Positions 1-23,583 of a stretch of DNA of 34,082 nt are shown here, one piece after another. The stretch is from Halorhabdus amylolytica (lineage in GTDB: Archaea > Halobacteriota > Halobacteria > Halobacteriales > Haloarculaceae): assembly GCF_004944975.1 (NCBI RefSeq), contig NZ_SPQG01000022.1:1-34082 (forward strand), in the 5' to 3' direction. The notes beneath the pieces are model-generated. The model saw only the letters and a program-made list of their open reading frames with translations, ran no database searches and was not told the origin of the DNA. Each line of letters starts with the position of its first letter. Position 1 is the first letter of the stretch. The translations under genes and the position numbers were made by a program.

Positions 1-54
1 GGGGAATCTCGCGTGGTATCTGGCCGATGATGAGCGCGCACGGCCTGTTTCCCC
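1..54. repeat. Terminal direct repeat (circular contig overlap), left copy
   Basis: These 54 bases are identical to 34029-34082 at the other end of the window. An exact end overlap of this size is what a short-read assembler leaves on a circular molecule. A protein-coding frame continues through the join without a stop, which supports real circularity rather than a linear element with terminal repeats. Confidence 0.93.
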
Positions 55-1499: not shown

Positions 1500-1578
1500 G
1501 GTGCAGCTGTCTATCGTCTTAGTTCTGTAAACTGAAACTCGTTACCAATCTCCGATAGCTACCTCGGTGATTCAACCC

Positions 1579-1716
1579 TCAATCCATACTGGCGAGAACC
1601 CGCTGACAAACCCACGCGTGGGGACCGTCGCTGTTGGCTTCGCGCTCGAGTTCCTCACGGTAGTCCTCGGGGAAGTTTCGATTCTGTTCTCCAGTCGTGG
1701 TGGTGTTGGTCGCCAT
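1579..1716 (-). CDS. Small acidic protein, 45 aa, end of the 1.7-2.5 kb operon
   Basis: A 45-aa frame begins with ATG at 1716, three bases after the stop of the preceding minus-strand gene (1719-1721), and has GGAGG just upstream. The product starts MATNTTTTGEQNR and is hydrophilic, with a run of acidic residues in EDYREELEREAN. No family recognised. Spacing and ribosome binding site are the main support. Confidence 0.5.
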   Translation of the reverse strand: MATNTTTTGEQNRNFPEDYREELEREANSDGPHAWVCQRVLASMD

Positions 1717-1718
1717 CT

Positions 1719-2504
1719 CTACGCCTCCGTGTCTGCGTGGCGGTCCTCTCCGGTTGAAGTGTGGGGGTTAGACGCTGAAGACCCACCTCCACCGCCCCGA
1801 TCCTGGCCGTCATCGTCGCCACTGTCGAACTCCGGCAGCAGATCTTTCGGCTCGAACTCCTCGCCACCGTCGAGCGACCACTCGTGCTCAAGTTCGAGGA
1901 AATCCAGGAGATACTCCTCGACGTCCCGTGCCGTTCGTTCCCTCTCGCCCGTGAGCGCGAGATGCTGCTCCCACAGTCGGACCCAGCGGACGATCTCGCT
2001 CGGCACCTCCGCCTTGACCTGTCCAGTCACCTCGCCGTAGTACTCGTTTTCGTGACCGGCCAGCGCACCCTCCAACTCTCGCATCACCCACTCGGCCGTG
2101 GTCTGGTCGTCCTCCTTCACGATATCGATCAACTCGATCATCGGCGAGGTGAGTTCGATAGTCACCGGGACTGCCCCGTCACGATCGGCGTCGGCGTGGC
2201 GTTGGTGGATGTCCCGCTCGGATGTCTCGGCCAGCTCGTGACTGTTCTTCCCTCCGTCTGTCGCCGGATCCTCGCCGAGACACTCGCCAGCAGCGGCCAG
2301 TGTGGCGGGATCGTCGGCAGCTCTGAGTACGACTCGGTCAAGCGCTTCCAGGGCGTTCATCACGTTCCCGCTCTGGTCGCCGAAAGAACTCCTCGGGACC
2401 CCCTCGAGTGCCTCCTTGGCGGTCAACGCTGCGACGAGGGCTTCAGGCTCGGGCGTCGGTTTCGCGTCGGTACTGTCAGTTGCGTCGGCGTTCGTGGTTG
2501 ACAT
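1719..2504 (-). CDS. Acidic hypothetical protein, 261 aa
   Basis: The start is at 2504 (MSTTNADATD), preceded by GGAGGT; an in-frame upstream start at 2615 would read through the TTAACCAACA inverted repeat and is unlikely. The N-terminal ~100 residues are low-complexity and acidic. The central part (ELTSPMIELIDIVKEDDQTTAEWVMRELEGAL) looks like a compact helical domain that resembles ribbon-helix-helix proteins in pattern only. The C-terminus is a Gly/Asp-rich linker. No catalytic motif. The inverted repeat at 2543-2570 lies about 40 bp upstream of the ATG, where it could act as an operator. Confidence 0.6.
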   Translation of the reverse strand: MSTTNADATDSTDAKPTPEPEALVAALTAKEALEGVPRSSFGDQSGNVMNALEALDRVVLRAADDPATLAAAGECLGEDPATDGGKNSHELAETSERDIHQRHADADRDGAVPVTIELTSPMIELIDIVKEDDQTTAEWVMRELEGALAGHENEYYGEVTGQVKAEVPSEIVRWVRLWEQHLALTGERERTARDVEEYLLDFLELEHEWSLDGGEEFEPKDLLPEFDSGDDDGQDRGGGGGSSASNPHTSTGEDRHADTEA

Positions 2505-2542
2505 TCGTGCGACCTCCGTGGGCCAGCCGCCTCGACGGGCGA

Positions 2543-2570
2543 TTAACCAACACCCGGCTATGTTGGTTAA
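2543..2570. promoter_or_regulatory. Inverted repeat IR1, TTAACCAACA / TGTTGGTTAA, 8-bp spacer
   Basis: A perfect 10-bp inverted repeat with an 8-bp spacer lies in the gap between two minus-strand genes, just upstream of the gene starting at 2504. It is the tightest of five copies of the same arms in the window. The position suggests a protein-binding operator. Confidence 0.8.
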
Positions 2571-2623
2571 ACTCCCATCGCCGAGACGGCGACCCGATCC
2601 GGGGCCGGCGGGCAAACAGCCCG

Positions 2624-2869
2624 CTACTCGTGGACATGGATGTGGGCGTGTACCTCGACGACGAGCCGGCCGTCATCGCCGACGTTGAGGCTGGCCGTCG
2701 CACCCGGCCCTGCGTCGCTCGTGGCCCCGTCAGGGGCGTCCTGATTGCTCTCGTGGACTGGGTGCTGTTTCCCACACGACGGGCAGCGTGTCGTGTCCTG
2801 GCCGGGAGCGACGCCGTCGCGGGCGGTGTCGAAGACGGTTCCGCACCGCTCGCACTCAACTTCGGTCAT
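2624..2869 (-). CDS. Zinc-ribbon protein, 81 aa
   Basis: The N-terminus holds two CxxC knuckles (CERCG near residue 6 and CPSCG near residue 29), the pattern of a zinc ribbon. The C-terminus is a short beta-type segment rich in His (EVHAHIHVHE). The ATG at 2869 overlaps the end of the upstream gene by 14 bp, so it is the last member of the operon that starts at 5559. Likely a small nucleic-acid- or protein-binding protein; specific role unknown. Confidence 0.65.
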   Translation of the reverse strand: MTEVECERCGTVFDTARDGVAPGQDTTRCPSCGKQHPVHESNQDAPDGATSDAGPGATASLNVGDDGRLVVEVHAHIHVHE

Positions 2870-3086
2870 CGTCCTGCCCCGGAAAGCACGCCCTGCAGGG
2901 GTCGTAGTGCGATTCGATCAGTGAGCGTTCTTTCTCCAGCAGGCTCCGGCCATCCGCCCCACAGAGCGGCCGTAACTCGCTGTCAGGCATCCGGACAGCC
3001 TTGTGGTACACTCTTCCGCCATTCCCAGCGAAGGTGAGGACCGTCTCTGTGGCGTTGTCCTCCCCGTCGTCGGTAGCGACATCCAT
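2856..3086 (-). CDS. Small cysteine/histidine-rich protein, 76 aa
   Basis: The start is ATG at 3086, overlapping the TGA of the TnpB-like gene (TGATG); a GTG three bases earlier is also possible. Cysteines occur in LCGADG and in HYDPCRACF, giving one possible metal site near the C-terminus. The N-terminal segment ETVLTFAGNGGRVYHKA looks like two beta strands. No family recognised. Part of the overlapping minus-strand operon. Confidence 0.6.
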   Translation of the reverse strand: MDVATDDGEDNATETVLTFAGNGGRVYHKAVRMPDSELRPLCGADGRSLLEKERSLIESHYDPCRACFPGQDDDRS

Positions 3087-3748
3087 CACAGCTCACCTTT
3101 GATCTTGTCGACGGCGCGTCGAGCGATCGAGACAGCGGCGCTTCGATCGCGATCGACGGTCTCGACAGGGCAGTCTGGCGTCGTACAGGTGATCGTCTCG
3201 TCCTCGACGTGAGCGAGCAGCTCGCACTCGTGGCAGGCGTTGGTCGTGTGTGTCGGATCGACGTACACGGGGTGATATCCGGCGTCACCCAGCGCGGTCT
3301 CCAGGCGGTCCTGAACGACGGGAAAGAGCCACGCGTCGAGGTCCTTCCCCTGGGTTCGCGCGTCGGTCAAGGACACCCACTCCTGGCCGAGTGCCTCGAG
3401 GGCGACGACGTCCGCGTCATGGGCCGCCAGATAGCCCAGCAGCGTCGCGATCGCGTCGTCGACGTGGTCCACGAGCAACGCCCGGTAGTGTCGATCGAGA
3501 CGGACAGCGTCGCTCTTCGCGTCGTCTGTCGTCGCCTGGCGCCGGCGAGTCGCTTCGCGAAGGTCAGCGAACAGCGCCCGGGCCGGCTCGCCGTCAACGC
3601 TGACGGCGCTCGCCACGTCGGGCGTGGCATCCGCTGGCGCGGCCGTGAAGAGCTGTCGAAGTCCCAGGTCCACGCCGACGATCGTGGGATCGTCGTCTGG
3701 CCCAGGCGTGGCGTTGGCCGTCGCGACGGGCGACGTGTGGCTACTCAT
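3086..3748 (-). CDS. TnpB-like RuvC/zinc-ribbon protein, lacking the N-terminal half
   Basis: 220 aa. TnpB is the RNA-guided nuclease of IS200/IS605 elements. The three RuvC blocks are visible: D27 in IVGVDLGL, E118 in VVALEAL, and DRDRSAAVSIARR with D199/D201. A zinc ribbon sits between blocks II and III (CHEC at 172-175, C188 and C193, preceded by the typical DPTHTTNACHEC). All three acidic positions are kept. The ~150-residue N-terminal part that binds guide RNA and target DNA in TnpB (about 370-400 aa) is missing. The ATG at 3748 overlaps the upstream gene by 8 bp, so the protein is built into an operon with no tnpA and no visible transposon ends. It may be a domesticated nuclease, a regulator or a shortened relic. 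Family assignment is solid; function is open. Confidence 0.82.
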   Translation of the reverse strand: MSSHTSPVATANATPGPDDDPTIVGVDLGLRQLFTAAPADATPDVASAVSVDGEPARALFADLREATRRRQATTDDAKSDAVRLDRHYRALLVDHVDDAIATLLGYLAAHDADVVALEALGQEWVSLTDARTQGKDLDAWLFPVVQDRLETALGDAGYHPVYVDPTHTTNACHECELLAHVEDETITCTTPDCPVETVDRDRSAAVSIARRAVDKIKGEL

Positions 3749-4097
3749 CAGCCACCTCCCGATCGAGGTGCTCCAGTGGGTCGATGTCGTCGGTACTCCC
3801 GCGGCCGATTGATTCGTGCATGACACGGTACGGGATCGGTGGAACTGGGTCGCCCCACGGTTCGACGCCCGCAACGGGTGCGGCGTAATCCTCGACACAG
3901 CGGCGTGCATGGTTCAACGCCAACCGTAGCTGGCGAACCTGTTCGTGGGTCACGGCCTCGCCCTTACGGAGTGTATCCTCGACGTCGTGAGACGCTTCTA
4001 CAAGCTCGGTACGGGCTTTGCCGAGCTCGCTACGCAGGAGCCCACGCCCCACGTCTTCCCACCTGACACCGCACTCTCGATCGTCGCGTGGTGTCAC
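3741..4097 (-). CDS. Helical hypothetical protein, 118 aa
   Basis: Mostly alpha-helical by composition: residues of about 18-70 form a continuous heptad-like helix (LLRSELGKARTELVEASHDV, then VRQLRLALNHARRCVEDYAA). A Pro-rich turn and an acidic tail follow. The start at 4097 overlaps the TGA of the upstream gene in ATGA. No family recognised. It lies directly before the TnpB-like gene and could be its partner by position only. Confidence 0.6.
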   Translation of the reverse strand: MTPRDDRECGVRWEDVGRGLLRSELGKARTELVEASHDVEDTLRKGEAVTHEQVRQLRLALNHARRCVEDYAAPVAGVEPWGDPVPPIPYRVMHESIGRGSTDDIDPLEHLDREVADE

Positions 4098-4480
4098 GCC
4101 GATCCCTCCAGTTCGGCCTCACGCTCGCGCTTTTTTTCGAGGACCTCGATGAACGCCTCGTGGGCCTCTTCATCGGCGTCGATCGCGTCGTAGTTGATGT
4201 CACAGGCAATCCAGCCGGCACAGTCACCGCAGAGTATCCCCGTGAGCCGGCCCGGAAGGTCCGCGGGCCCAAGCGGGAACTCCAACTCAATCGGGAACCC
4301 AGTCTCGACCGGGTCGCCACACTGCATACAGACGCCCTCAGGGAGATCGTGATCCTGCACGAGCTGGCAGGCACGGCAGATGTCCGCCTCGAGGGGCGCG
4401 ATCGGCGCGACGGTCGTGTGATCGACCATCTCCGGCAGCTTTTCCGCGCCACAGACCTCGCACTCCTGGCGGTCAGGCAT
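4094..4480 (-). CDS. Four-CxxC zinc-finger protein, 128 aa
   Basis: The start at 4480 (MPDRQECEVCG) overlaps the upstream gene by 8 bp. Four knuckles are visible: CEVC (7-10), CRAC, CMQC and CGDC, making two treble-clef or ribbon-type zinc sites, followed by a helical charged C-terminus (EAFIEVLEKKREREAELEGSA). No catalytic motif. Probably a nucleic-acid- or protein-binding component made together with the SWIM and TnpB-like proteins. Confidence 0.65.
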   Translation of the reverse strand: MPDRQECEVCGAEKLPEMVDHTTVAPIAPLEADICRACQLVQDHDLPEGVCMQCGDPVETGFPIELEFPLGPADLPGRLTGILCGDCAGWIACDINYDAIDADEEAHEAFIEVLEKKREREAELEGSA

Positions 4481-4775
4481 CGATTCCGCCACCTCCTGCT
4501 TCGTCCTTCGAGCCTTGAAGCGCCCGGGCGGCGTCCTCGGCGAGTTGTGGCCGTGGCGTGGTCGTCGCCGAGCGCCCAGCGTACTGATCGAGGACCTCAT
4601 CGATGGACAACCCGAACTCGCTGGCAGTCCGTCGGCCACTCGGCAGGGCCCGCGACGCCGTCGAGTAGTACCGGACACCGTCGTGTGGGATCCGCTTGCG
4701 GGCCTCCAGATCCCCCTCGTCGGTCACGAGAAGCGTGTAGTCACCGTCGCCGGCATCGTCGATGACGCGGGCCAT
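4473..4775 (-). CDS. Hypothetical protein, 100 aa
   Basis: The start at 4775 overlaps the TGA of the upstream gene (ATGA). The N-terminal 35 residues alternate like beta strands (YTLLVTDEGDLEARKRIPHDGVRYY); a helical stretch (ASEFGLSIDEVLDQYAG) and a Gly-rich tail follow. Not recognised. Confidence 0.58.
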   Translation of the reverse strand: MARVIDDAGDGDYTLLVTDEGDLEARKRIPHDGVRYYSTASRALPSGRRTASEFGLSIDEVLDQYAGRSATTTPRPQLAEDAARALQGSKDEAGGGGIDA

Positions 4776-5038
4776 CAGGCATCACCGCCGTCGCGGATGT
4801 GGGAGATGGCATCGACCAGTGCGTCCAGGCCCTCGCCGTCCAGCGTGAGCTCAACGCGGGTGTCTTCATCCGACGCGAACAGTGTCGCGTGTGGCTCGCT
4901 TGTACTCAGTGGCGTGTAGTCCGGCGCTTTGATGTGGAGTTTCGTGTCCGCTTGTGACTCCATCTCAAGCTTGCCCTCCTGGATCCGTGCGGTGACGGCG
5001 ACGTCGTCGATCGTGGTGACGTCTGCAAGGGGTGGCAT
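4775..5038 (-). CDS. Hypothetical protein, 87 aa
   Basis: The start at 5038 overlaps the stop of the SWIM-protein gene (ATGA). The composition suggests two or three beta strands, then a C-terminal helix (GEGLDALVDAISHIRDG). No cysteines and no known motif. Second gene of the minus-strand operon. Confidence 0.58.
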   Translation of the reverse strand: MPPLADVTTIDDVAVTARIQEGKLEMESQADTKLHIKAPDYTPLSTSEPHATLFASDEDTRVELTLDGEGLDALVDAISHIRDGGDA

Positions 5039-5559
5039 CAGATATCACCGTCCTCGGCGCTCGCCGGCGTCTCGAAGCCCTCGCGGTAGCACGCGAAGCA
5101 CGGCAGGTCTGCGTCAGTGTTCCACTCGCCGCACTCGCAGTCGTCGGGGCGGCCGTCGTCCTTGATGTCGGGCTCAAGGATCTCGCCGTCGTCACTGGCG
5201 ATGATGATCCCACCGTCAGCAGCTGCGACCTGTGGCGTGGCCTCGACGTGGTCGCCCAGCTGCTCGTCGATCGCGCCGGTGTCGGCCCACGACGGGATCG
5301 TCCGCTCGCCCGTCGCAAACTCCGCACGCCGGATGTGTTTACAGCGTGCCTCTCTGTACTCGTGGTCGGGACAGGTGCAACGCTCTTCGCGAAGATCGAC
5401 GCCGTAGGTGCCGCCGTTCTCGCCGACGACGGTGTAGACGTCACCCCCCTTCGGCAGGACGCTCATGCACTCCGTGAGCGCTCGGGCATCGCGATCATCG
5501 AGGTCGGTACGTCGGTCCGTGGCGGCAGTCTGAAGTGCCGCCGAGTCGTGTTTCGACAT
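5038..5559 (-). CDS. SWIM zinc-finger protein
   Basis: 173 aa. A SWIM finger (CxCx(n)CxH) is clear at about residues 61-76: CTCPDHEYREARCKHIRR, preceded by a beta hairpin (DVYTVVGENGGTYGVDLREER), as in known SWIM proteins. SWIM fingers bind DNA or protein partners and are common in haloarchaeal plasmids and viruses. A second possible metal site, CECG with CFAC, lies near the C-terminus. First gene of the operon running down to 2624, with its promoter in the repeat-bearing gap at 5560-5760. Confidence 0.75.
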   Translation of the reverse strand: MSKHDSAALQTAATDRRTDLDDRDARALTECMSVLPKGGDVYTVVGENGGTYGVDLREERCTCPDHEYREARCKHIRRAEFATGERTIPSWADTGAIDEQLGDHVEATPQVAAADGGIIIASDDGEILEPDIKDDGRPDDCECGEWNTDADLPCFACYREGFETPASAEDGDI

Positions 5560-5648
5560 GCTGTCTCAGAGCCGAGACAGAACCGCTCGGGTGCTCCAAC
5601 ACCCGGGCACTTCTCCGAACGAAGCGCCTCGAGGAGCGGGCCTGCCTT

Positions 5649-5713
5649 ACCCATACATACATCTGCATGGGTAATAAAAGTACCGGGTCATACATCTGCA
5701 TGGGGTTTTATTA
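5649..5713. promoter_or_regulatory. Divergent promoter region with two CATACATCTGCATGGG repeats
   Basis: Two exact 16-bp copies of CATACATCTGCATGGG (5656-5671 and 5689-5704) lie 33 bp apart, three helical turns. The first is also part of an inverted repeat ACCCAT/ATGGGT (5649-5654 and 5667-5672). TTTTATTA at 5706-5713 can serve as a TATA box for the plus-strand gene. The repeats sit between the minus-strand operon and the winged-helix gene, so the winged-helix protein is a candidate to bind them. Confidence 0.68.
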
Positions 5714-5762
5714 TTCCACGGATTCATCCACCTTTATGGGGAAGACGAGATCACATGGGGCC

Positions 5763-5990
5763 ATGCCCTACGATGAGCGTGACGAGGAGACTGGGCAGTT
5801 TAGCCCGACGTTTTCCGACTCAGACTTCCTCGAAGCTGTGGGAGATGGCGATCTCCCGACGACGAGTGATGTCGCGGACGCGGTCGGGTGTGAGTACCGG
5901 ACCGCCTACGAGCGGTTGAACCGGCTCGAAGATGAGAGCAGGGTTCAATCGAAGACAGTGGGGAACTCTCTCGTCTGGCAGCTGTCTTAG
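5763..5990 (+). CDS. Winged-helix DNA-binding protein, 75 aa
   Basis: MPYDERDEETGQFSP followed by FLEAVGDGDLPTTSDVADAVGCEYRTAYERLNRLEDESRVQSKTVGNSLVWQL is a typical short haloarchaeal winged helix: helix 2 TSDVADAVG, recognition helix YRTAYERLNRL and a wing ending in VWQL. I chose ATG 5763 by likeness to such proteins. ATG 5736, nine codons earlier in frame, lies 23-30 bp after the TATA-like TTTTATTA and would be a leaderless start. Likely a local transcription regulator of the divergent promoter it sits beside. Confidence 0.72.
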   Translation: MPYDERDEETGQFSPTFSDSDFLEAVGDGDLPTTSDVADAVGCEYRTAYERLNRLEDESRVQSKTVGNSLVWQLS

Positions 5991-5994
5991 AACC

Positions 5995-6417
5995 ATGGGC
6001 GAGGATGACGACGTCGATCCAGAGGATCCACGCCCGGAAGGACACTACCCTCGATTCGCCGATAACGAGTGGCACTATGTTCCTGACGAGCTGGCACAGA
6101 CGATCTCGCTCGGCCCAGCTGGCGACGGTGAGGAAAGTCAAGACTGGGTGCTGACGTACACACCGGAGAAGCGCGACGACACTGACAGAGAAAAGGTTCT
6201 CGTCCGGCTGACGCCGCGATCGCTGCACGAACTCTATATCGAGACGAAGGACCTCTCAGCTGACCAGCGGATGCATGGCCACAGTGCTGAGTGTGATCTT
6301 TGTGGCGACCAGGTCGATCTCGACGAGGCGATCCCGAACCCGCGGGGTGAGCCGTGTCACAAGCACTGCTGGGCGGAGTACACAGGTGCACCGGACTGGT
6401 TTGCTGATCACGTGTAG
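5995..6417 (+). CDS. Hypothetical protein with C-terminal CxxC/CxxHC motif, 140 aa (intact paralog)
   Basis: Begins MGEDDDVDPEDPRPEGHYPRF. The middle has a strand-rich domain (DWVLTYTPEKR ... EKVLVRLTPRSLHELYIETK) and the C-terminus a possible zinc site (AECDLCGDQ ... PCHKHCWAEYTGAPDWF). The same protein is encoded in broken form on the minus strand at 10160-10867, matching in DPEDPRPxGHY, VRLTPxxLHELxIExK, GHSAECxLCG and the C-terminal AEYTGAPDWF/AEAFGAPPWC, so this copy helps define the decay there. It starts five bases after the winged-helix gene, so the two are probably co-transcribed. Function unknown. Confidence 0.68.
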   Translation: MGEDDDVDPEDPRPEGHYPRFADNEWHYVPDELAQTISLGPAGDGEESQDWVLTYTPEKRDDTDREKVLVRLTPRSLHELYIETKDLSADQRMHGHSAECDLCGDQVDLDEAIPNPRGEPCHKHCWAEYTGAPDWFADHV

Positions 6418-6539
6418 TGGCGGCAGGCCGTCAAACCGGATGTAATGATAATCTGACCTCATACCAAGCACACTTGGCCCAATCGAAGACAGATGGTTAA
6501 CTCTCAGAGATAGTGGCAGCGGGGAGTGGCCAGTAAGCG

Positions 6540-6983
6540 CTACGGAAGCAAATCTCGGAGATCGTCTTCGTCGAGTGCGTCGTGCTGTTCAAGGTATGCA
6601 TCGACGTCGGAGACTGACTCCAGGTCCGTGACTTCTTCTGCCATCGTTTCTGCACTTGGACTATATTCGGCCAGAGCTTTGTACGGATAATCGTGGGTGA
6701 TATCGATGAAGAAGAGAAAGATGACGTGGTACTCAGTATTCCCACGAGGAATCTCGTCGACGACCTTCGTGTACAGTCGCCCCTGATCACCGACGGTGAT
6801 GATGTCGAGGTTTGCAATCCGCTCGTACACAAAAGAACTGGGCGGTGCCTCGCTCTCGACGATATTCAACAAACGTTGAATGACGGCTTCCTGTTCAGAA
6901 GCATCGAGTTCAGATAGATTCGCAGCAGCCTCCCCAGCAAAGATAACCCTTGTCTCTTCGTCCGAGAGGGGAACACGACTCAC
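6540..6983 (-). CDS. Possible RelE/ParE-like toxin of a toxin-antitoxin pair
   Basis: 147 aa. The core (ASEQEAVIQRLLNIVESEAP, then YERIANLDIITVGDQGRLYTKVVDEI and YHVIFLFFIDITHDYPY) has the helix-helix-strand order and the GRLYTKV...YHVIFLF strands of RelE/ParE-type toxins, with an extra acidic C-terminal tail of about 40 residues. It follows by 19 bp a 50-aa gene whose product looks like an antitoxin. The fold call rests on pattern only and the family is not certain; the gene pair arrangement is the stronger evidence. Confidence 0.6.
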   Translation of the reverse strand: MSRVPLSDEETRVIFAGEAAANLSELDASEQEAVIQRLLNIVESEAPPSSFVYERIANLDIITVGDQGRLYTKVVDEIPRGNTEYHVIFLFFIDITHDYPYKALAEYSPSAETMAEEVTDLESVSDVDAYLEQHDALDEDDLRDLLP

Positions 6984-14894: not shown

Positions 14895-14920
14895 GTTTCA
14901 CTTGTAAGAGTGGTGTGTCT
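14895..14920 (-). repeat. Origin-recognition-box-like repeat 3 (inverted)
   Basis: GTTTCACTTGTAAGAG then TGGTGTGTCT, the reverse orientation of copies 1 and 2. It overlaps the orc1 stop codon by two bases. Confidence 0.75.
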
Positions 14921-16148
14921 ATACGACGTCGTTCATCGTTGCGATTTCCCTGATCGTCTGGATTTCTCCATCCAACCGGAGTACATCCGACATGGCCTCA
15001 ATTGCGCTCGTGAAGGGAACGTCGAGTTGGTAACTGTAGTAGTTCCCCCGGGAGCCACTCCGATTTTCGTGGGCAGACAAGATCCCGAGCATCCGTAGAT
15101 CCGAGAGGTGGTTGTGTAGCGAGCGCTGAGCCAGCGTATCAGTTTCAGATGACTCACAGAGCGTGGTGTACTCCTCGTAGATGTCCCGAGTTCGGCACGG
15201 CGTCTCTTCCTTCGCCGCTTTGGAGATGACGGCCAACAGGGCGAGACGGCCATGCGTCGTCAGCTCGCGCATCCCTTCTTCGACGCGCTCCTGTTCGAGT
15301 CTCGAGCGTGCTGTCTCGACGTGATCCTCAACGATGACATCATCGCCCTGGTTCTCGGCTATCTCGCCAGCGAGGCGAAGTAGGTCCAGAGCCTGGCGGG
15401 CACTCCCGCTGTCACGAGCGGCGAGCGCAGCGCAGTAATTCAGAACACCGTTCTCTACAGCGCCCTCGGCGATCGCGACCTCTGCTCGCGAGGAGAGGAT
15501 GTTCTCAAGTTCAGGAGCATCGTACGGCGGGAACTGGAGTTCCCGTTCACAGAGCGTGTCTTGGACGCGAGGATCCAGCTGCTCGCGGAATTTGAAGTCA
15601 TTACTGATGCCGATGACACCGACTTTGGCTGACTCAAGGTACCCATTGGCGCGAGCTCGAGGGAGTTCGTAGAGGAGTTCGTCGCGACCGCCAATCGAGT
15701 CCACCTCATCGAGAATGATCAAGATCGTCCCACCGATGGCATCAAGCTCCTCGTACAGTTTCTTGAAGACGGTCTGCTGGGGATACCCCGTGGAACTGAT
15801 TTCCCCGCCAGCAGGACGGAGTTTGTTCACGAGTTCGACGGCAACCTGATACGAGGAGTTCAGTGTCTTGCAGTTCAGGGAGATGACTGAGAGATCGACA
15901 TCATCGTAATCAGTGACGTCTTCTTGGAGTTGATCCATCAGATAATCAGTCACGGCAGTCTTCCCCACACCGGTATTCCCGTAGAGAAAGATATTGTTCG
16001 GCTCCCATCCGTCGACGACAGGCTGAAGAGCATCCATGTACTCCTCGATCTCCTCGTCACGCTCCTCGATCCGATCAGGTTGATAGGACTCCCCCAGGGC
16101 ATCCTTGTTGCGGAAGATGTTCTGCTTCCGCTCAAACCGCCGAGACAT
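14919..16148 (-). CDS. orc1/cdc6: Orc1/Cdc6 replication initiator
   Basis: 409 aa, the usual length. Walker A is GNTGVGKT (57-64), Walker B TILIILDEVD (141-150), followed by the conserved GISNDFKFREQLDPRVQ initiator-specific and sensor region and, at the C-terminus, a winged helix (DIYEEYTTLCE...LAQRSLHNHLSDLRMLGIL). Archaeal Orc1/Cdc6 binds origin recognition boxes and loads the MCM helicase. Boxes of one family lie on both sides of this gene and nowhere else that I noticed, so it is very probably the initiator of this element. A TATATAAAA element sits 23 bp before the ATG, fitting a leaderless transcript. Confidence 0.95.
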   Translation of the reverse strand: MSRRFERKQNIFRNKDALGESYQPDRIEERDEEIEEYMDALQPVVDGWEPNNIFLYGNTGVGKTAVTDYLMDQLQEDVTDYDDVDLSVISLNCKTLNSSYQVAVELVNKLRPAGGEISSTGYPQQTVFKKLYEELDAIGGTILIILDEVDSIGGRDELLYELPRARANGYLESAKVGVIGISNDFKFREQLDPRVQDTLCERELQFPPYDAPELENILSSRAEVAIAEGAVENGVLNYCAALAARDSGSARQALDLLRLAGEIAENQGDDVIVEDHVETARSRLEQERVEEGMRELTTHGRLALLAVISKAAKEETPCRTRDIYEEYTTLCESSETDTLAQRSLHNHLSDLRMLGILSAHENRSGSRGNYYSYQLDVPFTSAIEAMSDVLRLDGEIQTIREIATMNDVV

Positions 16149-16170
16149 GAGCGACCCTTCTAACGACTGG

Positions 16171-16179
16171 TATATAAAA
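16171..16179 (-). promoter_or_regulatory. TATA box of orc1/cdc6
   Basis: TATATAAAA on the plus strand (TTTTATATA for minus-strand reading), 23-31 bp upstream of the orc1 ATG at 16148; leaderless spacing. It is followed upstream by a partial box (TTTCAAGTGAAAC, 16194-16206), so Orc1 binding could repress its own promoter. Confidence 0.68.
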
Positions 16180-16211
16180 CCACCCGTACAACTGTTTCAA
16201 GTGAAACACAC

Positions 16212-16239
16212 AGACACACACCACTGTTACAAGTGAAAC
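16212..16239 (+). repeat. Origin-recognition-box-like repeat 4
   Basis: AGACACACACCACTG followed by TTACAAGTGAAAC. Upstream side of orc1, next to the partial box at 16194. Confidence 0.78.
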
Positions 16240-16415
16240 AGTAGAGTAGTAGTAGCTAGTTGAGCAACAGTCCACAGTTTCATCTAAAGCGGTGACATGT
16301 AGACACTCATCTAAAGCTGATTCTACGGGTATTGTACTGTCTTCTAGCCGGGATTCAAGGATTCAGATGACTGCCTTCGACCATCGGCTCAGATTTGTAC
16401 TTGGGTCTTTTCTCG
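16240..16415. other. AT-rich stretch between inverted boxes: probable unwinding region
   Basis: Roughly 175 bp without a gene, AT-richer than its surroundings, bounded by a forward box (16212) and an inverted box (16416). It contains a short repeat CATCTAAAGC (16281-16290) / CATCTAAAGC (16308-16317). This is the standard layout of a haloarchaeal origin next to orc1, with inward-facing boxes around an AT-rich core. Confidence 0.62.
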
Positions 16416-16443
16416 GCTTCACTTGCAAGAGTGGTGTGTCTCT
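16416..16443 (-). repeat. Origin-recognition-box-like repeat 5 (inverted)
   Basis: GCTTCACTTGCAAGAG then TGGTGTGTCTCT, facing copy 4 across the AT-rich core. Confidence 0.78.
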
Positions 16444-16523
16444 GTCCTTCTTAGATCTCTAAGATAGTATTCCTTTCCAATCAATTTGTTGGTTAGCTCG
16501 AGATCTGTCTTTGTCCTGATTCG

Positions 16524-16712
16524 TTATTCGGGTAGATTTCCCGTCTCGTCAGTTATCTCTGTGTGATGTTCGACATCCTTGAGCATCTCCTCTGGATTCT
16601 CGAGGGCCACGTACAACAGTGCGGCATCCTCAATTGCCTCACGGGCTGTTCCGCCGTGCTCGTTCTGAAGCGTTGCGAAGACGTCGCCGGACAGTTCGAC
16701 GTTCACTGGCAT
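16524..16712 (-). CDS. Small acidic protein, 62 aa
   Basis: The start at 16712 (MPVNVELSGDVFATL) has AGGAG about 9 bp upstream; a start at 16754 would add a basic tail out of keeping with the rest. A first strand (VNVELS) followed by two helices (GDVFATLQNEH; AREAIEDAALLYVAL) matches the ribbon-helix-helix layout of small regulators and antitoxins. No toxin gene is adjacent. Role unknown. Confidence 0.55.
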   Translation of the reverse strand: MPVNVELSGDVFATLQNEHGGTAREAIEDAALLYVALENPEEMLKDVEHHTEITDETGNLPE

Positions 16713-16873
16713 CGATGTACTCCTGGAAGGAAGCCCCTTCCAATTGATCGCCAAAGGTCCGTTTGGAGTTAGTACTGCCCACCATCGTCATCAGCATGGA
16801 GAGACTCCTACCAGCTGATCGGAGTCACCAGCGTCCCGACTGATATACGTGACTGGGAGTCGAACGGCAATCT

Positions 16874-18445
16874 GTGACCGAGTTCGAGATCACGCCTCGT
16901 GGTGGGGTCGAAGAAGTCGGCCGGTCGTGCTATCAGGTCCAGACCGGCGATCGTGACTACCTCGTCGATTGTGGCCTCAAACAGTCCCACACGGCCGAGT
17001 TCCCCACGTTCCGGGGACTGGAGCCTGGGCAGATCGACGCGGTGTTCGTCACCCACGCCCATATTGACCACATCGGTGGGCTTCCCGTCGCTGAACAGCG
17101 TGGCCTGTTCGCCGACGACGCGTCGATCATCATGACACGGCCAACGAACGCCCTCGCTACGATTCTCCTTCACGACTCCCTGCAGATCCACAAGCAGGAG
17201 GCCGACGAACTCGGGCGGCCGCAGGAGTTCACCAGCGACGACGTCAAGCGCGTCCTCGATCGCGTCACCAGCGTCGGCTATGATCGCGACCATCACCTCA
17301 ACGTCACCTACGAGTTCGGCGACGCCGCGCACCTGCTGGGCAGCTCGTGGCTCGCCCTCGAATTCGACGAGCGGCGGGTCGTCTTCTCAGGTGACCTCGG
17401 CGGCCGTAGCGCCCACCTGGACGACATCGACGACCCGCCGGAGGCCGACGAACTCCTCCTTGAGTCCACGTACGGAGACACGATGCAGCACCGGTCGTTC
17501 AGCGATGCCCGGACTGAGGTCTACGAGCAGGCCAAGCAGGCCCAGGCGTCAGGGATACCGGTCCTCATCCCGACGTTCGCCGTCGGTCGGGCTCAAGAAA
17601 TCCTCCAGCTCTTCCGAGAACGTGAGGACGATCTTCGGAGCGCTGTCGATGGCGAGCCGTCGATCGTCTACGATGGGATGATCACGGACTCGATGCCCGT
17701 CTACGAGGTCTTCTGCCAGGACGAGTTCATGGGCGATTCCATAATCAACTACCGGATCAACTCCAACGACGCCGAGCCGTTCACGCCGGAGTGTGCCTGG
17801 ACGCCCGAGACGATGGACGAACGAGAGCGCCTTCTTGACGGCGACAACGCGCCGATCATCGTCGCGCCGTCGGGCATGCTCACCGGCGGCTGGTCGCCGT
17901 ACTACCTGCGAGACCTCGCCCGGCACTACGACGAGGCACGAGTGCTCTTCATCGGCTACCAGGCCGAAGGGACGCCTGGCCGAGAGATCCTCGACGCGCC
18001 GGGCGACGATGCCAACGTTCAGATCACGGCGCTGCCGGCTGCCGAAGACTACGATCCCGAGACCGACGACTTCGGCTTCCAGGAGCAGAAGATTCGTATA
18101 CCGACCGCATGGGTGCGTGAGATCGGCGGGATGTCTGGCCACGCCGCCGCGAACGATCTACTTGAGTTCGCTCGCGAAGCCGATCCGCTGGGGATTTCAC
18201 TCGTTCATGGGCCACCAGGCGCGGCAACACACCTTCGGGAGCACCTTGCCGACAACACCGACGCGGAGCGGGTGCAGACTGGGCAGCACCTTGCGACGAT
18301 CGAGGTCGGCCAGTCCGACGTGATCACGCCGGACGTCGAACGCCTGCTTGAACGGCAGACCCGTCTCGAAGAAGAACTGGATGCTCTTCGCGAAGAGATC
18401 GAAAAAGTGGCGAATCGCCAGCGAGCGCGTGAGAAAAAGAACTGA
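16874..18445 (+). CDS. Beta-CASP metallo-beta-lactamase-fold RNase-like protein
   Basis: 523 aa from GTG 16874. Motif 2 is HAHIDHIGG (61-69); later metal ligands follow in AAHLLGSSW and FSGDLGG; the beta-CASP marks are the central insert (VLIPTFAVGRAQEIL ... GMITDSM), GGMSGHAAANDL and the final VHGPPGA. This is the architecture of archaeal CPSF/RNase J-type enzymes, which process or degrade RNA. The N-terminal KH domains of aCPSF1 are absent, and a C-terminal coiled coil (about 490-523, LEEELDALREEIEKVANRQ) is added. Encoded just beyond the origin and alone in its transcript. It might control plasmid RNA levels; that is inference. Confidence 0.88.
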   Translation: MTEFEITPRGGVEEVGRSCYQVQTGDRDYLVDCGLKQSHTAEFPTFRGLEPGQIDAVFVTHAHIDHIGGLPVAEQRGLFADDASIIMTRPTNALATILLHDSLQIHKQEADELGRPQEFTSDDVKRVLDRVTSVGYDRDHHLNVTYEFGDAAHLLGSSWLALEFDERRVVFSGDLGGRSAHLDDIDDPPEADELLLESTYGDTMQHRSFSDARTEVYEQAKQAQASGIPVLIPTFAVGRAQEILQLFREREDDLRSAVDGEPSIVYDGMITDSMPVYEVFCQDEFMGDSIINYRINSNDAEPFTPECAWTPETMDERERLLDGDNAPIIVAPSGMLTGGWSPYYLRDLARHYDEARVLFIGYQAEGTPGREILDAPGDDANVQITALPAAEDYDPETDDFGFQEQKIRIPTAWVREIGGMSGHAAANDLLEFAREADPLGISLVHGPPGAATHLREHLADNTDAERVQTGQHLATIEVGQSDVITPDVERLLERQTRLEEELDALREEIEKVANRQRAREKKN

Positions 18446-18509
18446 CGAGAAGAGGGCCATCGTGGTACCGTCGCTTCAAGAAGTTCAAGAATCCAGTATA
18501 TTACCCCAT

Positions 18510-19361
18510 CTAATCGTTGACTGGGACTCTCCGTAATTTACCCTCTTTCGGCGGGTAGCAAAGACCACTCGTCAGTGTGTCTTCGATCGCATCTTTGGCC
18601 TCCGAACGGGTGATTTCTGCCTCTTCGGCGACTACTCGCTCAGTTCGATTTCGATCAGCGGGTTCGCCATCACTCGACAGCTCGTCGAGTGTGTCAAGAA
18701 CCACCCTGACAAGTTCCGGATTCTCGGGGTCTGGTGGAGTATGAAGTACATCTAACGGATGCTTATCCTCAAAGTGAAAGTCTAAGACATCCCATAGGCC
18801 TGGATATTCTGTATTAAACCCTCTTAGCTCACGACTCCTTTCTTCTGAGATATCTTCGACTAACTTGTCAATGTCAAATTCATCTTTGCGTTCGATATTT
18901 ATCGATACCTCGAATCTACCATACTTCCCCGTCTGTTCATAGTAATCTAAGGCGGCAGCCGTAGTCAACTCTTCCTCCACCATCCATCGGAAGTTTTCTG
19001 TCCCCTGGAACTCCCGGAAGAACGCCATCATCTCCTCAATGGCATCAAGAATCCGGCGGGTTTTCCGCCCCGATTCAGGATCGGTCGGTCCTTGCCACTC
19101 CCCAGTTTCATCAAGATATCCTACGTCGTCCTGCATCTCTTGGACAACTTGGCCCAGATCCCGTGTGTCCATTCGCTTCAAATAACTCAAGTCCTGAATA
19201 GCGTGGACCATCCGTTGTCGGAGCTGATATCGCTTCTGCCGAATCTCGTTGGCGTCAAGCTCGTCGTTGAGTTCGCCTGCCAAAAATCGGCGATCGCGTG
19301 ATGTGAAAATCCCTCGCTGACGATCAAAATCAGCCATCACAGTATCTACGTCGTTAGCCAT
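18510..19361 (-). CDS. Haloarchaeal hypothetical protein with C-terminal helix-turn-helix, 283 aa
   Basis: The N-terminus (FDRQRGIFTSRDRRFLAGELNDELDANEIRQKRYQLRQRMVHAIQDLSYL) is a helical block seen in many haloarchaeal regulator-like proteins; an analogous block starts the 488-aa protein at 26776. The middle contains FRWMVEEELTTAAALDYYEQTGKYGRFEVSINIERK. The C-terminal 50 residues (RVVAEEAEITRSEAKDAIEDTLTSGLCYPP) fit a winged helix. A CTAAC-G-GTTAG palindrome five bases from the ATG suggests autoregulation. No enzyme motif. Confidence 0.65.
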   Translation of the reverse strand: MANDVDTVMADFDRQRGIFTSRDRRFLAGELNDELDANEIRQKRYQLRQRMVHAIQDLSYLKRMDTRDLGQVVQEMQDDVGYLDETGEWQGPTDPESGRKTRRILDAIEEMMAFFREFQGTENFRWMVEEELTTAAALDYYEQTGKYGRFEVSINIERKDEFDIDKLVEDISEERSRELRGFNTEYPGLWDVLDFHFEDKHPLDVLHTPPDPENPELVRVVLDTLDELSSDGEPADRNRTERVVAEEAEITRSEAKDAIEDTLTSGLCYPPKEGKLRRVPVND

Positions 19362-19365
19362 GCAA

Positions 19366-19400
19366 CTAACGGTTAGATCTACTATGGGATAAATATTAAT
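19366..19400. promoter_or_regulatory. Divergent promoter with CTAACGGTTAG operator
   Basis: An 11-bp palindrome (19366-19376) lies beside the ATG of the 283-aa gene, and an AT-rich ATAAATATTAAT (19390-19401) about 30 bp from both divergent starts can act as TATA box either way. Confidence 0.58.
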
Positions 19401-19429
19401 GTCGGGAGGCCCATATCCAGAATGAACAG

Positions 19430-19564
19430 ATGCCGACTGAGATCACGACAGTATCTGTCCACCCTCAACGCGCCGAGAAACTCCGGGAGTTTCGCGACTC
19501 GCAGGACGATGTGTCAACTCTTGACGAAGCGCTCGGGCAGCTACTACGCGAAAAAGGAGAATGA
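19430..19564 (+). CDS. Ribbon-helix-helix antitoxin-like protein, 44 aa
   Basis: MPTEITTVSVHPQRAEKLREFRDSQDDVSTLDEALGQLLREKGE: a strand (ITTVSVH), helix 1 (QRAEKLREFR) and helix 2 (TLDEALGQLLRE), the layout of VapB-type and other ribbon-helix-helix proteins. It lies about 30 bp after an AT-rich TATA-like element. No PIN-domain or other toxin gene follows, so it may be an orphan antitoxin or a copy-number or transcription repressor. Confidence 0.6.
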   Translation: MPTEITTVSVHPQRAEKLREFRDSQDDVSTLDEALGQLLREKGE

Positions 19565-19856
19565 TGTCACTCATGGACAGTAGAATCGGGAAAAACGACG
19601 ACGGCCTGAACCTTGGCGGGGGCGGGCCGACGTCGTTTGAAGACACGGGCACGATCCCGAGTCACGGCGCCGCACTTACGCCGCGACCGGGATGTGGGCG
19701 CGACGGAAGTGCGACGGGCAGGCCTCCCCTGGGGGGTGATGCCTGTGCATAGTCTTACTCGCCGCACCCACAAATGTGTTACTCCCTCAGCTAACGGAGT
19801 GATCTCTGTGCCCGTCAAAGGCCTCGAGGAGGCCCGAACTCCTCGCCGAACGCTAG
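19565..19856. other. Gap without a convincing gene
   Basis: About 290 bp of GC-rich sequence. A 63-aa frame (19561-19752) starts inside the ATGATG at the end of the preceding small gene and reads MMSLMDSRIGKNDDG, but the rest is Gly/Pro/Arg-rich with no structure, so I do not call it. No promoter-like AT element is obvious before the 873-aa gene. Confidence 0.4.
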
Positions 19857-22478
19857 ATGACGGCATCAAGCTCAACTGAAACCTACACTCGAACGTACGA
19901 AGACGACACTACCACTCACGAACCGCGACTCATCTCGACCGAGCAACAACCTGCTGCGACGGCAGCGACAGTCACGCTCGACCAGTCACCCTCGAACGTC
20001 TGGGCGACGATCGCGACGGCAGACGGCTTCCAGGAGGCGTTGAAGGATGCCGTGCGCACGATCCTTCCTCATCCGCGACACTCGCCACCGGTCGCACTCG
20101 AGGAAGCAGGCGTGACCGCGCTCGACGGCGGCTACGCCCGGATCGTCGCCGGCCTCGACCGCGCGCCGGAGACGGATGTCCATCAGGACGCGCTTGACCT
20201 CACGGCCCAGCTCGGCCAGGACGGCATGACGTCCCTCGGACACGCGCCGATCGAGGCTGTCGAGGACGGGCCCGTCGCCACGCTCCAAGCTGGCGACGTC
20301 GTCCCGACGATCGAGGTCCGCGTTCCTGACGAGTTCAAAGAGCGATCCCGTGACCAGCGGGAGACAACGCTTGATCTACTCGCCACGCTGGCCTTGGCCT
20401 GTGAGGTCCACGTGGTCGCCGGCCGGATCACGACCCGCTGGCTGGCTCACAAGCATCGCGATGAACTTCCGACCGAGTTTAGCGAGCGCGCGACTGCCCG
20501 GGGTGACGAGGGATCACCCAGCGACGAAGTTGTGACGGCGACTCGCAGCGAGCTCGATCCCGACGGCCGAGTGGTCGAAGTACTCCGCCGGCTTGCCGCA
20601 GAACCCTCAGACTCGCTGTCCTACCACGAGATCAAGTCCTCGTTCGACGTGACGGCTGGCCGGATCAGTCAGGTCCTCGGCACGCTTGAGGAACTCGATC
20701 TCGCCCAGCGCTACGGACCGCGTTCGGAGCAGCACGTCGAACTGCTCCCAGCTGGATCGGCGTTCTTGGACGCTCTCGACGCCGAGATTGGACGACAGGC
20801 AGATCTCGATTCGGTGTTTAGCGAGGCCGGACAGGACTCTCCACAGGCCGTGTTAACCCGCGGGCAAGAGAGGTCCCCCACTGACGACGTCCCCTTCAGC
20901 ACGGCGTGGTTGGCTCGCCAGGAACACGCTCCCGCTGCGGCGACAGCTACCGAGGGGGCGATTTCCCTCCTCGACACACCGATTCCAGCCGATAAAACGG
21001 ACAATGAGCGACGAATCCGCTACGTCAGCTACGACTCGAGCCGTGATGAAGCCGTGGTCGCTGTTCGAGCGACTGGCCCCCTCAACTACATGACGAGCAC
21101 CGCATTGGCTTTAGCGAGCCCCCGATTCATCGACGCCGCACTCCCACCGTCCCGTCTCGAAGCCATCGACGAGCCCGAGATGATCCTCCGGAACGCAAGG
21201 CACATCGGCGGAATATCGTCCGAAGCGGCCGACGACGGTGAGGAACTCCGAGACAGGCTCGTCGAGTGGGGCGAGGAACTGGCCCAGATGACGACTGATC
21301 TCCACAATGGCGAGTACGAGGATCGCAACCGCTTCCGGGGACAAATCCTCAGCTCGGCTCACGGGCTCGCTGGCTCGTTGGTCCACCTCCTCGATGCCGC
21401 CGGCGTGGATCTCGTCAGAGAGTTCCGCCTCCCTGGCGGCTTGGACGCTGATCATCTTGAGGACCTCGCCGAGACGATCGCGACAGGGACGGCGATCCAG
21501 TCTGCCTACGGCGTCTTCGGTATGTACCGCCAGCTCTTCGAAACCCGTGAGGAAAAGCGCCAGACTGCAATCTCCCCGGATGTGGATCCGACCGAGTCCG
21601 TTGGCGAGTACATCGGGAGTCTCGTCGTCCGGGGCCCCGACGTCCACCGCTTCGAGCCGTACCTCGAGGACGCCCTCGCTGACCCGGCTGACGTCCACGA
21701 TGATGCCCCCGAGATCCAGGTCCGTGTCCCAATTCGCCGGCCAGACCGTACCGACGCGGCAGAGACGGCGACGAGAGTCCTCGGCCAGAAGAACCTCAAG
21801 CCGACACGGGACGCTGTCACGATCCTCAGGTCCCTTACCGACGATCCCTACGCGATCGCCGAGGCGCTCAACTGGCTGGGCACGGAAGATCACTCTCGGG
21901 ACGTCCGCCTCGACGAGGTCCGCGTTGCCCTGTCGAAGCTGGGGCCCGACCGCCTCCTCCCGGATGCTCCGCCGACGGCGTCGAAGGCCGTCGCGACGCT
22001 CCTCCGGATGGCTCGCCCACTGACGCAGTCCGAACTGGCCGAAAAAGCGGATGTCTCGACCCGCTCGCTGCGCCGACACATGGGCACTCTGGAGCTCCTC
22101 GATCTCGTCCGGGAGACCGAGCGTGGCTACCGGATCGCTCTCCCGGACCCTGACGACGAGCGTGGCCAGCGCATCCTCCCCGAGCCCGTCGAGGACGATC
22201 TCGCCGCCATGCAGGACTACGTCTTCGACGCCGCGTTCGACCTCGTCGAGGACCCGGCACGCCTGACCGACCCGGGCGATTCACTCGGCGCTGCGCTGTC
22301 GTTCCCGCCCGACTTCGACGCGGTCGCCGAGGAACTGCCCAGACTGGAGTCGTGGATCCCACTGGCTCGCCAGCTCTGCGACGATCCCGACCCGGACGAA
22401 CAGCGGACTGTCACGATGGGGCCGGAGATCGAGGCCCCACAGACCAGTCTCGACGCCGCCGCAGGAGGTGACCGATGA
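19857..22478 (+). CDS. Large multi-winged-helix protein, 873 aa
   Basis: The longest protein of the element. After a ~60-residue disordered start, several globular parts are visible. A winged helix lies near residues 235-290 (VVEVLRRLAAEPSDSLSYHEIKSSFDVTAGRISQVLGTLEELDLAQRYG). The middle is a strand-rich domain (RRIRYVSYDSSRDEAVVAVRATGPLNYMTSTALALASPRFID). A second winged helix lies near 705-760 (VATLLRMARPLTQSELAEKADVSTRSLRRHMGTLELLDLVRETERGYRIAL). No nuclease, helicase or relicase motif is seen. It is followed by two genes coupled through ATGA overlaps. It may organise plasmid replication, copy control or transcription; the exact family is not recognised. Confidence 0.72.
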   Translation: MTASSSTETYTRTYEDDTTTHEPRLISTEQQPAATAATVTLDQSPSNVWATIATADGFQEALKDAVRTILPHPRHSPPVALEEAGVTALDGGYARIVAGLDRAPETDVHQDALDLTAQLGQDGMTSLGHAPIEAVEDGPVATLQAGDVVPTIEVRVPDEFKERSRDQRETTLDLLATLALACEVHVVAGRITTRWLAHKHRDELPTEFSERATARGDEGSPSDEVVTATRSELDPDGRVVEVLRRLAAEPSDSLSYHEIKSSFDVTAGRISQVLGTLEELDLAQRYGPRSEQHVELLPAGSAFLDALDAEIGRQADLDSVFSEAGQDSPQAVLTRGQERSPTDDVPFSTAWLARQEHAPAAATATEGAISLLDTPIPADKTDNERRIRYVSYDSSRDEAVVAVRATGPLNYMTSTALALASPRFIDAALPPSRLEAIDEPEMILRNARHIGGISSEAADDGEELRDRLVEWGEELAQMTTDLHNGEYEDRNRFRGQILSSAHGLAGSLVHLLDAAGVDLVREFRLPGGLDADHLEDLAETIATGTAIQSAYGVFGMYRQLFETREEKRQTAISPDVDPTESVGEYIGSLVVRGPDVHRFEPYLEDALADPADVHDDAPEIQVRVPIRRPDRTDAAETATRVLGQKNLKPTRDAVTILRSLTDDPYAIAEALNWLGTEDHSRDVRLDEVRVALSKLGPDRLLPDAPPTASKAVATLLRMARPLTQSELAEKADVSTRSLRRHMGTLELLDLVRETERGYRIALPDPDDERGQRILPEPVEDDLAAMQDYVFDAAFDLVEDPARLTDPGDSLGAALSFPPDFDAVAEELPRLESWIPLARQLCDDPDPDEQRTVTMGPEIEAPQTSLDAAAGGDR

Positions 22479-22846
22479 GCAGTACTGACGATCCCGCCAC
22501 GACTACCATCGATTCCGACGTAGAGGCACTCCGTGCCGAGGTCGCATCGCTTCACAAGGAACTCGCCGAGGCCAAGCAGCGCATCACCGCCCTCGAGGAC
22601 CGCCTCGAAAACGGATCGACGCTCCCACCAGGAGCTGCCGACCATCGCGATGCCCGCGTTCTCGAAGCGATCGAGCCTGGCGACGTCGTCCAACTTCGTA
22701 CGCTCCGGTCGCTGTATGAGGATCGTACTGACATCCGCGATGAGGAGACGCTCCGGGAGCGCATCAAGGACCTCACGCGACGGGACGCCTTCGAGCTCGT
22801 GGGTCGGCAGCACTGGCAGTACCTCGGAGGTGAGGCGGACCGATGA
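22475..22846 (+). CDS. Coiled-coil/winged-helix accessory protein, 123 aa
   Basis: Starts at the ATGA overlapping the 873-aa gene's stop. Residues of about 15-50 are a leucine-heptad coiled coil (VEALRAEVASLHKELAEAKQ). The C-terminal part (LEAIEPGDVVQLRTLRSLYEDRTDIRDEETLRERIKDLTRRDAFELVGRQHWQYL) is a winged helix. Probably a dimeric DNA-binding partner of the large protein. Confidence 0.68.
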   Translation: MSSTDDPATTTIDSDVEALRAEVASLHKELAEAKQRITALEDRLENGSTLPPGAADHRDARVLEAIEPGDVVQLRTLRSLYEDRTDIRDEETLRERIKDLTRRDAFELVGRQHWQYLGGEADR

Positions 22847-23415
22847 CCTACGGTCCCCTTGTCGAAGTGCCCGACTCTCCTGTTCAGGTCGTCGCCAGTA
22901 TCCACTACGCAGACGACCAACCCGACGACGCCGTCGAGACCCTTCGGGAGATGCTGGAGGTGATGGCCGGCTGGATCGTCTGTGACTGGTGTCTCACCCG
23001 CATTCGGAACGTCCATCCAGCGTACGATAGAGCGAAGGCCCGCAGGCTGTCAATCGGAGATACAAGGTACGCTCTCGAAGCCAGTAGCTATCGCGTCACG
23101 TCGGAGGGCACGGTTGAGGCGTCTTTGGAGACCTCTATCCCAACGCCAGACACGTACGTAGGCTACGGCCCGGGAGACACGTCGAAATCAACCGCCTGCC
23201 CAAGCTGCGGACGGATGGATGGCGAACACCCGGGCAAGAACCGGACGAAGCGAGAGCGAGAGGACCACTTCAAGAACTTGGCCGCAGCGATCGAGGAGCG
23301 TGCCGACTTCTCACTCGATACAGAGGCCGGCATCGACGAAGTCTACGCTGCCAGTAAGAACTGCAACCTTGACGACTTCGATGTCCTCGCTCGGGCTCTG
23401 TACGCAGCGATCTGA
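22843..23415 (+). CDS. Hypothetical protein with CxxC pairs, 190 aa
   Basis: Starts in the ATGA overlap with the preceding gene. CDWC near residue 47 and CPSCG near residue 118 could jointly bind one zinc ion, separated by a strand-rich stretch. The C-terminal third is helical (EREDHFKNLAAAIEERADFS...DDFDVLARALYAAI). Third gene of the coupled operon; no known family. Confidence 0.65.
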   Translation: MTYGPLVEVPDSPVQVVASIHYADDQPDDAVETLREMLEVMAGWIVCDWCLTRIRNVHPAYDRAKARRLSIGDTRYALEASSYRVTSEGTVEASLETSIPTPDTYVGYGPGDTSKSTACPSCGRMDGEHPGKNRTKREREDHFKNLAAAIEERADFSLDTEAGIDEVYAASKNCNLDDFDVLARALYAAI

Positions 23416-23575: not shown

Positions 23576-23583
23576 ACGTACCC

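What the first reader, a model, noticed from the sequence alone, without database searches (positions are those of the whole stretch)
3086..3748. TnpB-like RuvC domain without its guide-RNA half, inside an operon
Seen: D27/E118/D199-201 and the CxxC...CxxxxC zinc ribbon intact in only 220 aa, ATG and stop overlapping neighbours on both sides, with no tnpA and no transposon ends. Known: TnpB is an RNA-guided nuclease whose N-terminal half binds guide RNA; nuclease-dead TnpB repressors have been described, but those keep the N-terminus and lose catalysis. This is the reverse. Inference: domesticated nuclease, possibly partnered by the small zinc-finger proteins around it, which may replace the lost recognition part.
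Basis: partly seen in the sequence, partly recalled or inferred. Interest (0 to 1): 0.7.

Follow-up and report, generated by a model that had tools for sequence, protein, structure and literature searches.

The report
Stand-alone TnpB nuclease half, haloarchaeal plasmids
A salt-loving archaeon's circular plasmid carries only the DNA-cutting half of a TnpB gene scissor; the same half-protein is conserved as a stand-alone gene in many relatives, always with an intact active site, and in about half of its close relatives it sits beside Cas5/Cas7 genes of a CRISPR-derived system, suggesting it is a cutting subunit aimed by other proteins.

Summary
A 220-aa protein on the minus strand (3086-3748) contains only the RuvC and zinc-ribbon half of TnpB, with D27, E118, D201 and four Cys intact.

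It is not a broken insertion element. It belongs to an old stand-alone family in Halobacteria. The 47 stand-alone copies tested fall into two groups, A and B, separate from full-length haloarchaeal TnpB, and the catalytic residues are invariant wherever aligned. None has a TnpB N-terminal remnant within 2 kb upstream (control: 24 of 27 full-length genes). dN/dS is 0.13-0.37.

Its operon neighbours are co-conserved. The 128-aa eight-cysteine protein gave eight strong hits in 391 genomes, all beside this family. In 12 of 23 group-A loci the gene is linked to Cas7-like, uncharacterised and Cas5-like genes (intact or degraded), matching the array-less HRAMP system, for which HNH and PD-(D/E)xK nucleases are the usual ones reported. 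The window lacks those genes, but its 118-aa neighbour is 49% identical to the gene just upstream of cas7 in another HRAMP locus.

Best reading: a TnpB-derived effector nuclease subunit whose targeting is supplied by other proteins, RAMP-type in some loci and unknown small proteins here. The targeting mechanism is inference; the 2019 HRAMP paper could not be read.

The parts
3086..3748 (-). Stand-alone TnpB C-terminal protein, 220 aa: RuvC (D27, E118, D201) plus TNB zinc ribbon (C172, C175, C188, C193)
   Evidence: AlphaFold model pLDDT 81, pTM 0.78; best structural matches Cas12f/TnpB RuvC, Z up to 15.8
3741..4097 (-). 118-aa protein (family c13); overlaps the TnpB-C start by 8 nt; no zinc finger
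   Evidence: homologues in 6 of 23 group-A loci and 3 of 40 HRAMP loci; 49% identity over 80 aa to the gene just upstream of HRAMP cas7 in L184
4094..4480 (-). 128-aa eight-cysteine (4 x CxxC) zinc-ribbon-like protein (ZN8)
   Evidence: invariant Cys in 10 orthologues; 8 of 8 strong hits in 391 genomes and 3 of 3 plasmid hits are beside TnpB-C
4473..4775 (-). 100-aa conserved protein (c23)
   Evidence: found only in group-A TnpB-C loci in the set compared (3 loci)
4775..5038 (-). 87-aa conserved protein (c10)
   Evidence: 7 group-A loci; both plasmid hits are TnpB-C plasmids
5038..5559 (-). 173-aa SWIM zinc-finger protein, first gene of the operon
   Evidence: Pfam SWIM 1.3e-5; family found in many haloarchaeal plasmids, so not specific
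5763..5990 (+). 75-aa small regulator-like protein, divergently transcribed from the operon
   Evidence: counterpart of small genes annotated as transcriptional regulators beside TnpB-C in L038 and L040; related small regulators in HRAMP and group-B loci
2856..3086 (-). 76-77-aa downstream gene overlapping the TnpB-C stop
   Evidence: similar gene in one other group-A locus (L095)
2624..2869 (-). 81-aa zinc-ribbon protein, downstream, probably same transcript
   Evidence: Zn_ribbon_4 8.7e-5, below its cut-off; similar gene in L091

Best explanation
It is a domesticated TnpB-derived endonuclease subunit. An ancestral haloarchaeal TnpB lost its guide-RNA/target-recognition half, and the remaining RuvC plus zinc-ribbon domain became the cutting subunit of multi-protein, probably defensive modules carried by plasmids and integrated elements. 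In HRAMP-type loci a Cas7/Cas5 complex would bind a guide or target nucleic acid and bring the RuvC subunit to it, a role that HNH nucleases may hold in other HRAMP loci. In window-type loci the RAMP genes are absent and co-conserved small proteins (the 128-aa zinc protein, 118-aa c13, 87-aa c10) are the candidate recognition or adaptor subunits. Shown: conserved truncation, intact active site, selection, linkage to these genes. Inferred: nuclease activity, complex formation, the source of targeting, and the defensive role.
For: Stand-alone copies form groups apart from full-length haloarchaeal TnpB (A+B on one side of a 99/99 branch; B 100/100). D, E, D and four Cys invariant wherever aligned in 21 A and 26 B copies; 0 of 47 have an N-terminal remnant against 24 of 27 controls; dN/dS 0.13-0.37. 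Strong ZN8 hits 8 of 8 beside TnpB-C. 12 of 23 group-A loci carry cas7/mid/cas5, intact or degraded, in constant order; Cas7-like matches Csm3 2e-4 and RAMPs, Cas5-like matches Cmr3 1e-7. Other HRAMP loci carry HNH and RNase H-like genes just downstream, as reviews describe for HNH (PMC12669027, PMC8730458). The window's c13 is 49% identical to the gene upstream of cas7 in L184. The model matches Cas12f/TnpB RuvC, Z up to 15.8.
Against: The window and its whole genome lack the HRAMP Cas7-like gene, so RAMP-based targeting cannot apply here unless a different complex is used. Only a small share of HRAMP loci carry TnpB-C: the Cas7-like gene occurs in 105 of 391 genomes, and none of 40 further Cas7 loci fetched has a group-A TnpB-C beside it. 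No guide RNA, array or biochemical activity is known. HRAMP copies in one strain (Natrialba chahannaoensis) are degraded while some TnpB-C frames stay open, so the nuclease may work without them. Other HRAMP loci of the same Cas7 subfamily show no obvious nuclease in that slot. Group A is not a strict clade in the tree because one very long full-length branch (L002) falls inside it.
Confidence: 0.5

Rival explanations
1. Guide-independent nuclease: the RuvC domain acts like RuvC resolvase on branched or single-stranded DNA during plasmid replication, partition or competition, with the small zinc proteins binding DNA.
For: The model also matches bacterial RuvC Holliday-junction resolvases at Z about 12. 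The family often sits on plasmids and, here, on a circular element with a phage-type tail tube gene and Orc1/Cdc6. Window-type loci have no RAMP genes.
Against: The zinc ribbon and conserved positions are those of TnpB/Cas12f, and top structural matches are guide-dependent enzymes. Half of group A is linked to HRAMP genes.
Confidence: 0.25
2. Works in trans with the resident CRISPR-Cas machinery or another RNA-binding complex of the host.
For: The genome has a cas1 gene on another contig.
Against: No linkage to standard cas genes was noticed in the stand-alone loci compared.
Confidence: 0.1
3. Regulatory or structural role: the protein binds nucleic acid and no longer cuts.
For: Nuclease-dead TnpB repressors are known (from memory); a divergent regulator-like gene flanks the operon.
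Against: The catalytic triad is invariant wherever aligned in 47 copies, with purifying selection in the pairs tested.
Confidence: 0.1
4. A truncated insertion-sequence tnpB, an ordinary decaying fragment.
For: Truncated full-length-type tnpB genes do occur in haloarchaea (for example L098, 256 aa, nested within full-length TnpB).
Against: Separate group of short homologues, no N-terminal remnant, dN/dS well below 1, conserved operon position across genera.
Confidence: 0.03

Closest known systems
TnpB (IS200/IS605, IS607, IS1341; OMEGA nucleases) and Cas12f
   Same: RuvC motifs I-III, TNB zinc ribbon, predicted fold
   Different: N-terminal WED/REC half absent; no insertion-sequence context found; gene embedded in a conserved operon; Ser in place of the usual Asn two residues after the RuvC-III Asp in most group-A copies
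HRAMP (haloarchaeal RAMP, array-less type III-derived system; Makarova et al. 2019)
   Same: Relatives carry Cas7-like, uncharacterised and Cas5-like genes next to this nuclease, without an evident array; the window shares the c13 gene family
   Different: The window itself has no cas5/cas7; reported HRAMP nucleases are most often HNH and PD-(D/E)xK (PMC12669027); whether the 2019 paper mentions a TnpB-type one could not be checked
TldR-type nuclease-dead TnpB repressors
   Same: Domesticated TnpB derivative (from memory)
   Different: Opposite retention: here catalysis is kept and the recognition half lost

Membership tests
TnpB / OMEGA nuclease | RuvC D-E-D triad and CxxC...CxxxxC zinc ribbon | tested here: met
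TnpB / OMEGA nuclease | N-terminal WED/REC half that binds omega-RNA and target | tested here: not met
   220 aa, aligned only to positions 194-389 of 389 of guided_TnpB; 0 of 47 upstream regions with a remnant against 24 of 27 controls
TnpB / OMEGA nuclease | omega-RNA at the 3' end of the gene and transposon right end | tested here: inconclusive
   No Rfam match in the window and the stop overlaps the next gene, leaving little room; no expression data
TnpB / OMEGA nuclease | Associated Y1 TnpA transposase | tested here: not met
   none on contig C15; optional in this family
HRAMP | Cas7-like, uncharacterised protein and Cas5-like genes in the locus | tested here: not met
   Window and own genome: Cas7-like absent. 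Relatives: intact or degraded in 12 of 23 group-A loci
HRAMP | Associated nuclease gene, no CRISPR array | tested here: met
   Intact RuvC nuclease candidate; no array-like repeat family among those shown for 1500-6600 of the window and four relatives
TldR nuclease-dead TnpB | Inactivated RuvC with N-terminal half kept | tested here: not met
Type V CRISPR (Cas12) | Adjacent CRISPR array | tested here: not met

The most novel reading that the evidence does not exclude
A class 1/class 2 hybrid: the TnpB/Cas12-type RuvC nuclease has been detached from its own guide-binding half and serves as the interchangeable cutting subunit of a multi-subunit Cas7/Cas5 (HRAMP) complex, and in other branches (the window) of a wholly different set of small adaptor proteins.
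Probability: 0.35. Interest if true: 0.85.

Novelty: new variant of a known kind. Interest (0 to 1): 0.62.

Why it matters
TnpB is the ancestor of Cas12, and all characterised members I know of carry guide recognition and cutting in one chain. A conserved, catalytically intact stand-alone cutting half shows the two can be separated in nature, gives HRAMP a candidate effector nuclease, and offers a very small RuvC module whose targeting partner can be sought genetically. It also makes the open question of how array-less HRAMP systems act directly testable.

Tried and rejected
Direct scans of genome and viral contigs with the window protein alone gave nothing; with a group-A alignment, genome contigs gave 12 loci (11 of them group-A type, one a distant Metallosphaera TnpB) and viral contigs only two distant TnpB hits. 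ZN8 was not found in viral contigs. The AlphaFold model of ZN8 was too poor to search (pLDDT 56), and complexes could not be predicted. PDB sequence search gave no hit for the Cas7-like protein and only weak Csm4 hits for the Cas5-like one (E 0.3). No tRNA or Rfam family in the window. The coiled-coil partner of group B is common on haloarchaeal plasmids, so not taken as a specific partner. PADLOC gave no hit for the HRAMP accessory genes tried. The 2019 HRAMP paper is not held. Considered and rejected: chance ORF, decayed insertion element, nuclease-dead repressor.

Full report
What is there. The window's 220-aa ORF is real and lies on the minus strand at 3086-3748. It holds the C-terminal half of TnpB: RuvC motifs with D27, E118 and D201 and a four-cysteine zinc ribbon (Pfam Cas12f1-like_TNB 4.4e-6; guided_TnpB positions 194-389 of 389). 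A 12-sequence AlphaFold2 model is confident (pLDDT 81, pTM 0.78) and matches the RuvC/TNB part of Cas12f and TnpB, Z up to 15.8. Its start overlaps the 118-aa gene by 8 nt and its stop overlaps the next gene. No Y1 TnpA lies on this contig.

It is a family, not a fragment. A profile search of 391 genomes of the class found a top tier of short homologues (mostly 205-230 aa, group A; 230-330 aa, group B), then full-length TnpB of about 405-490 aa. In a tree of 78 RuvC domains, groups A and B together are separated from full-length haloarchaeal TnpB by a 99/99 branch; B is a 100/100 clade; A is broken only by one extremely long branch, L002. Catalytic and zinc residues are invariant wherever aligned in 21 A and 26 B copies; tblastn with TnpB N-terminal halves finds no remnant in 2 kb upstream of any of 47 stand-alone genes but does in 24 of 27 full-length controls; dN/dS of 12 pairs is 0.13-0.37. 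A genuine truncation (L098) behaves differently: it nests within full-length TnpB.

Neighbours. Gene calls on related loci show a recurring operon. In the window: divergent small regulator-like gene, SWIM protein, c10 (87 aa), c23 (100 aa), ZN8 (128 aa), c13 (118 aa), TnpB-C. ZN8 has eight invariant Cys and is more conserved than TnpB-C itself (51-61% identity to the window in most orthologues, against 30-41% for TnpB-C). All eight strong ZN8 hits in 391 genomes, and all three plasmid hits, are beside TnpB-C. c10 shows the same in plasmids (2 of 2). The SWIM protein is generic.

HRAMP link. In 12 of 23 group-A loci (L039, L048, L079-L083, L085, L087, L089, L133, L137) the TnpB-C gene is followed by genes, intact or degraded, for a Cas7-like protein (Csm3 2e-4, RAMPs), an uncharacterised 246-aa protein, and/or a Cas5-like protein (Cmr3 1e-7). 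This matches the published description of HRAMP, an array-less type III-derived system of haloarchaea with added nucleases, most often HNH and PD-(D/E)xK (PMC8730458, PMC12669027). The Cas7-like gene occurs in 105 of 391 genomes. A second Cas7 subfamily (L197, L198, L201) has HNH genes just downstream, and L198 and L199 have RNase H-like ones, consistent with the published picture. The window's genome has no such Cas7, but its c13 gene is 49% and 46% identical over 80 aa to the gene directly upstream of cas7 in two HRAMP loci, L184 and L195, tying the window operon to the HRAMP gene pool.

Mechanism. Shown by sequence: conserved truncation, intact active site, purifying selection, linkage. Inferred: that the protein cuts nucleic acid, that targeting comes from other subunits (Cas7/Cas5 in some loci, ZN8/c13/c10 here), and that the purpose is defence or plasmid competition. 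A guide-independent, structure-specific nuclease is the main rival, since RuvC resolvases also match at Z about 12 and degraded HRAMP copies sit beside open TnpB-C frames in Natrialba chahannaoensis.

Known or new. It cannot be filed as TnpB/OMEGA (N-terminal half tested and absent), as TldR (catalysis kept), as Cas12 (no array), or strictly as HRAMP in the window (no cas7 in the genome, no cas5/cas7 in the locus). In relatives it looks like a HRAMP variant with a TnpB-derived nuclease. I found no paper describing it in the held library, but the primary HRAMP paper was not available, so prior mention cannot be excluded.

Noticed in passing
window 1-54 and 34029-34082: First and last 54 bases are identical, so the contig is probably a closed circle of about 34.03 kb.
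   Followed up: yes
window 14919-32486: The circle carries Orc1/Cdc6, a phage integrase, a phage tail tube/minor tail protein, a phage-type replication protein (phrog_17376) and a beta-CASP metallo-hydrolase with RMMBL domain: phage-plasmid-like.
   Followed up: partly
L039, L040, L044, L045, L048, L079 (ZN8) and L182, L183, L193, L206, L214 (HRAMP accessory genes): Many small proteins of TnpB-C and HRAMP operons start with Tat-signal-like RRxFL sequences, suggesting export or membrane attachment; the window copies lack it.
   Followed up: no
L099-L118, L041, L090: Group B stand-alone TnpB-C genes (Natrialba-type) sit beside a divergent winged-helix-like regulator and are mostly followed by a coiled-coil protein; one (L042) is fused in a 735-aa protein.
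   Followed up: partly
L082-L086, L109 (Natrialba chahannaoensis, G359): One genome carries at least six stand-alone TnpB-C copies of both groups; group-A copies L082, L083 and L085 have degraded cas7 remnants beside them.
   Followed up: partly
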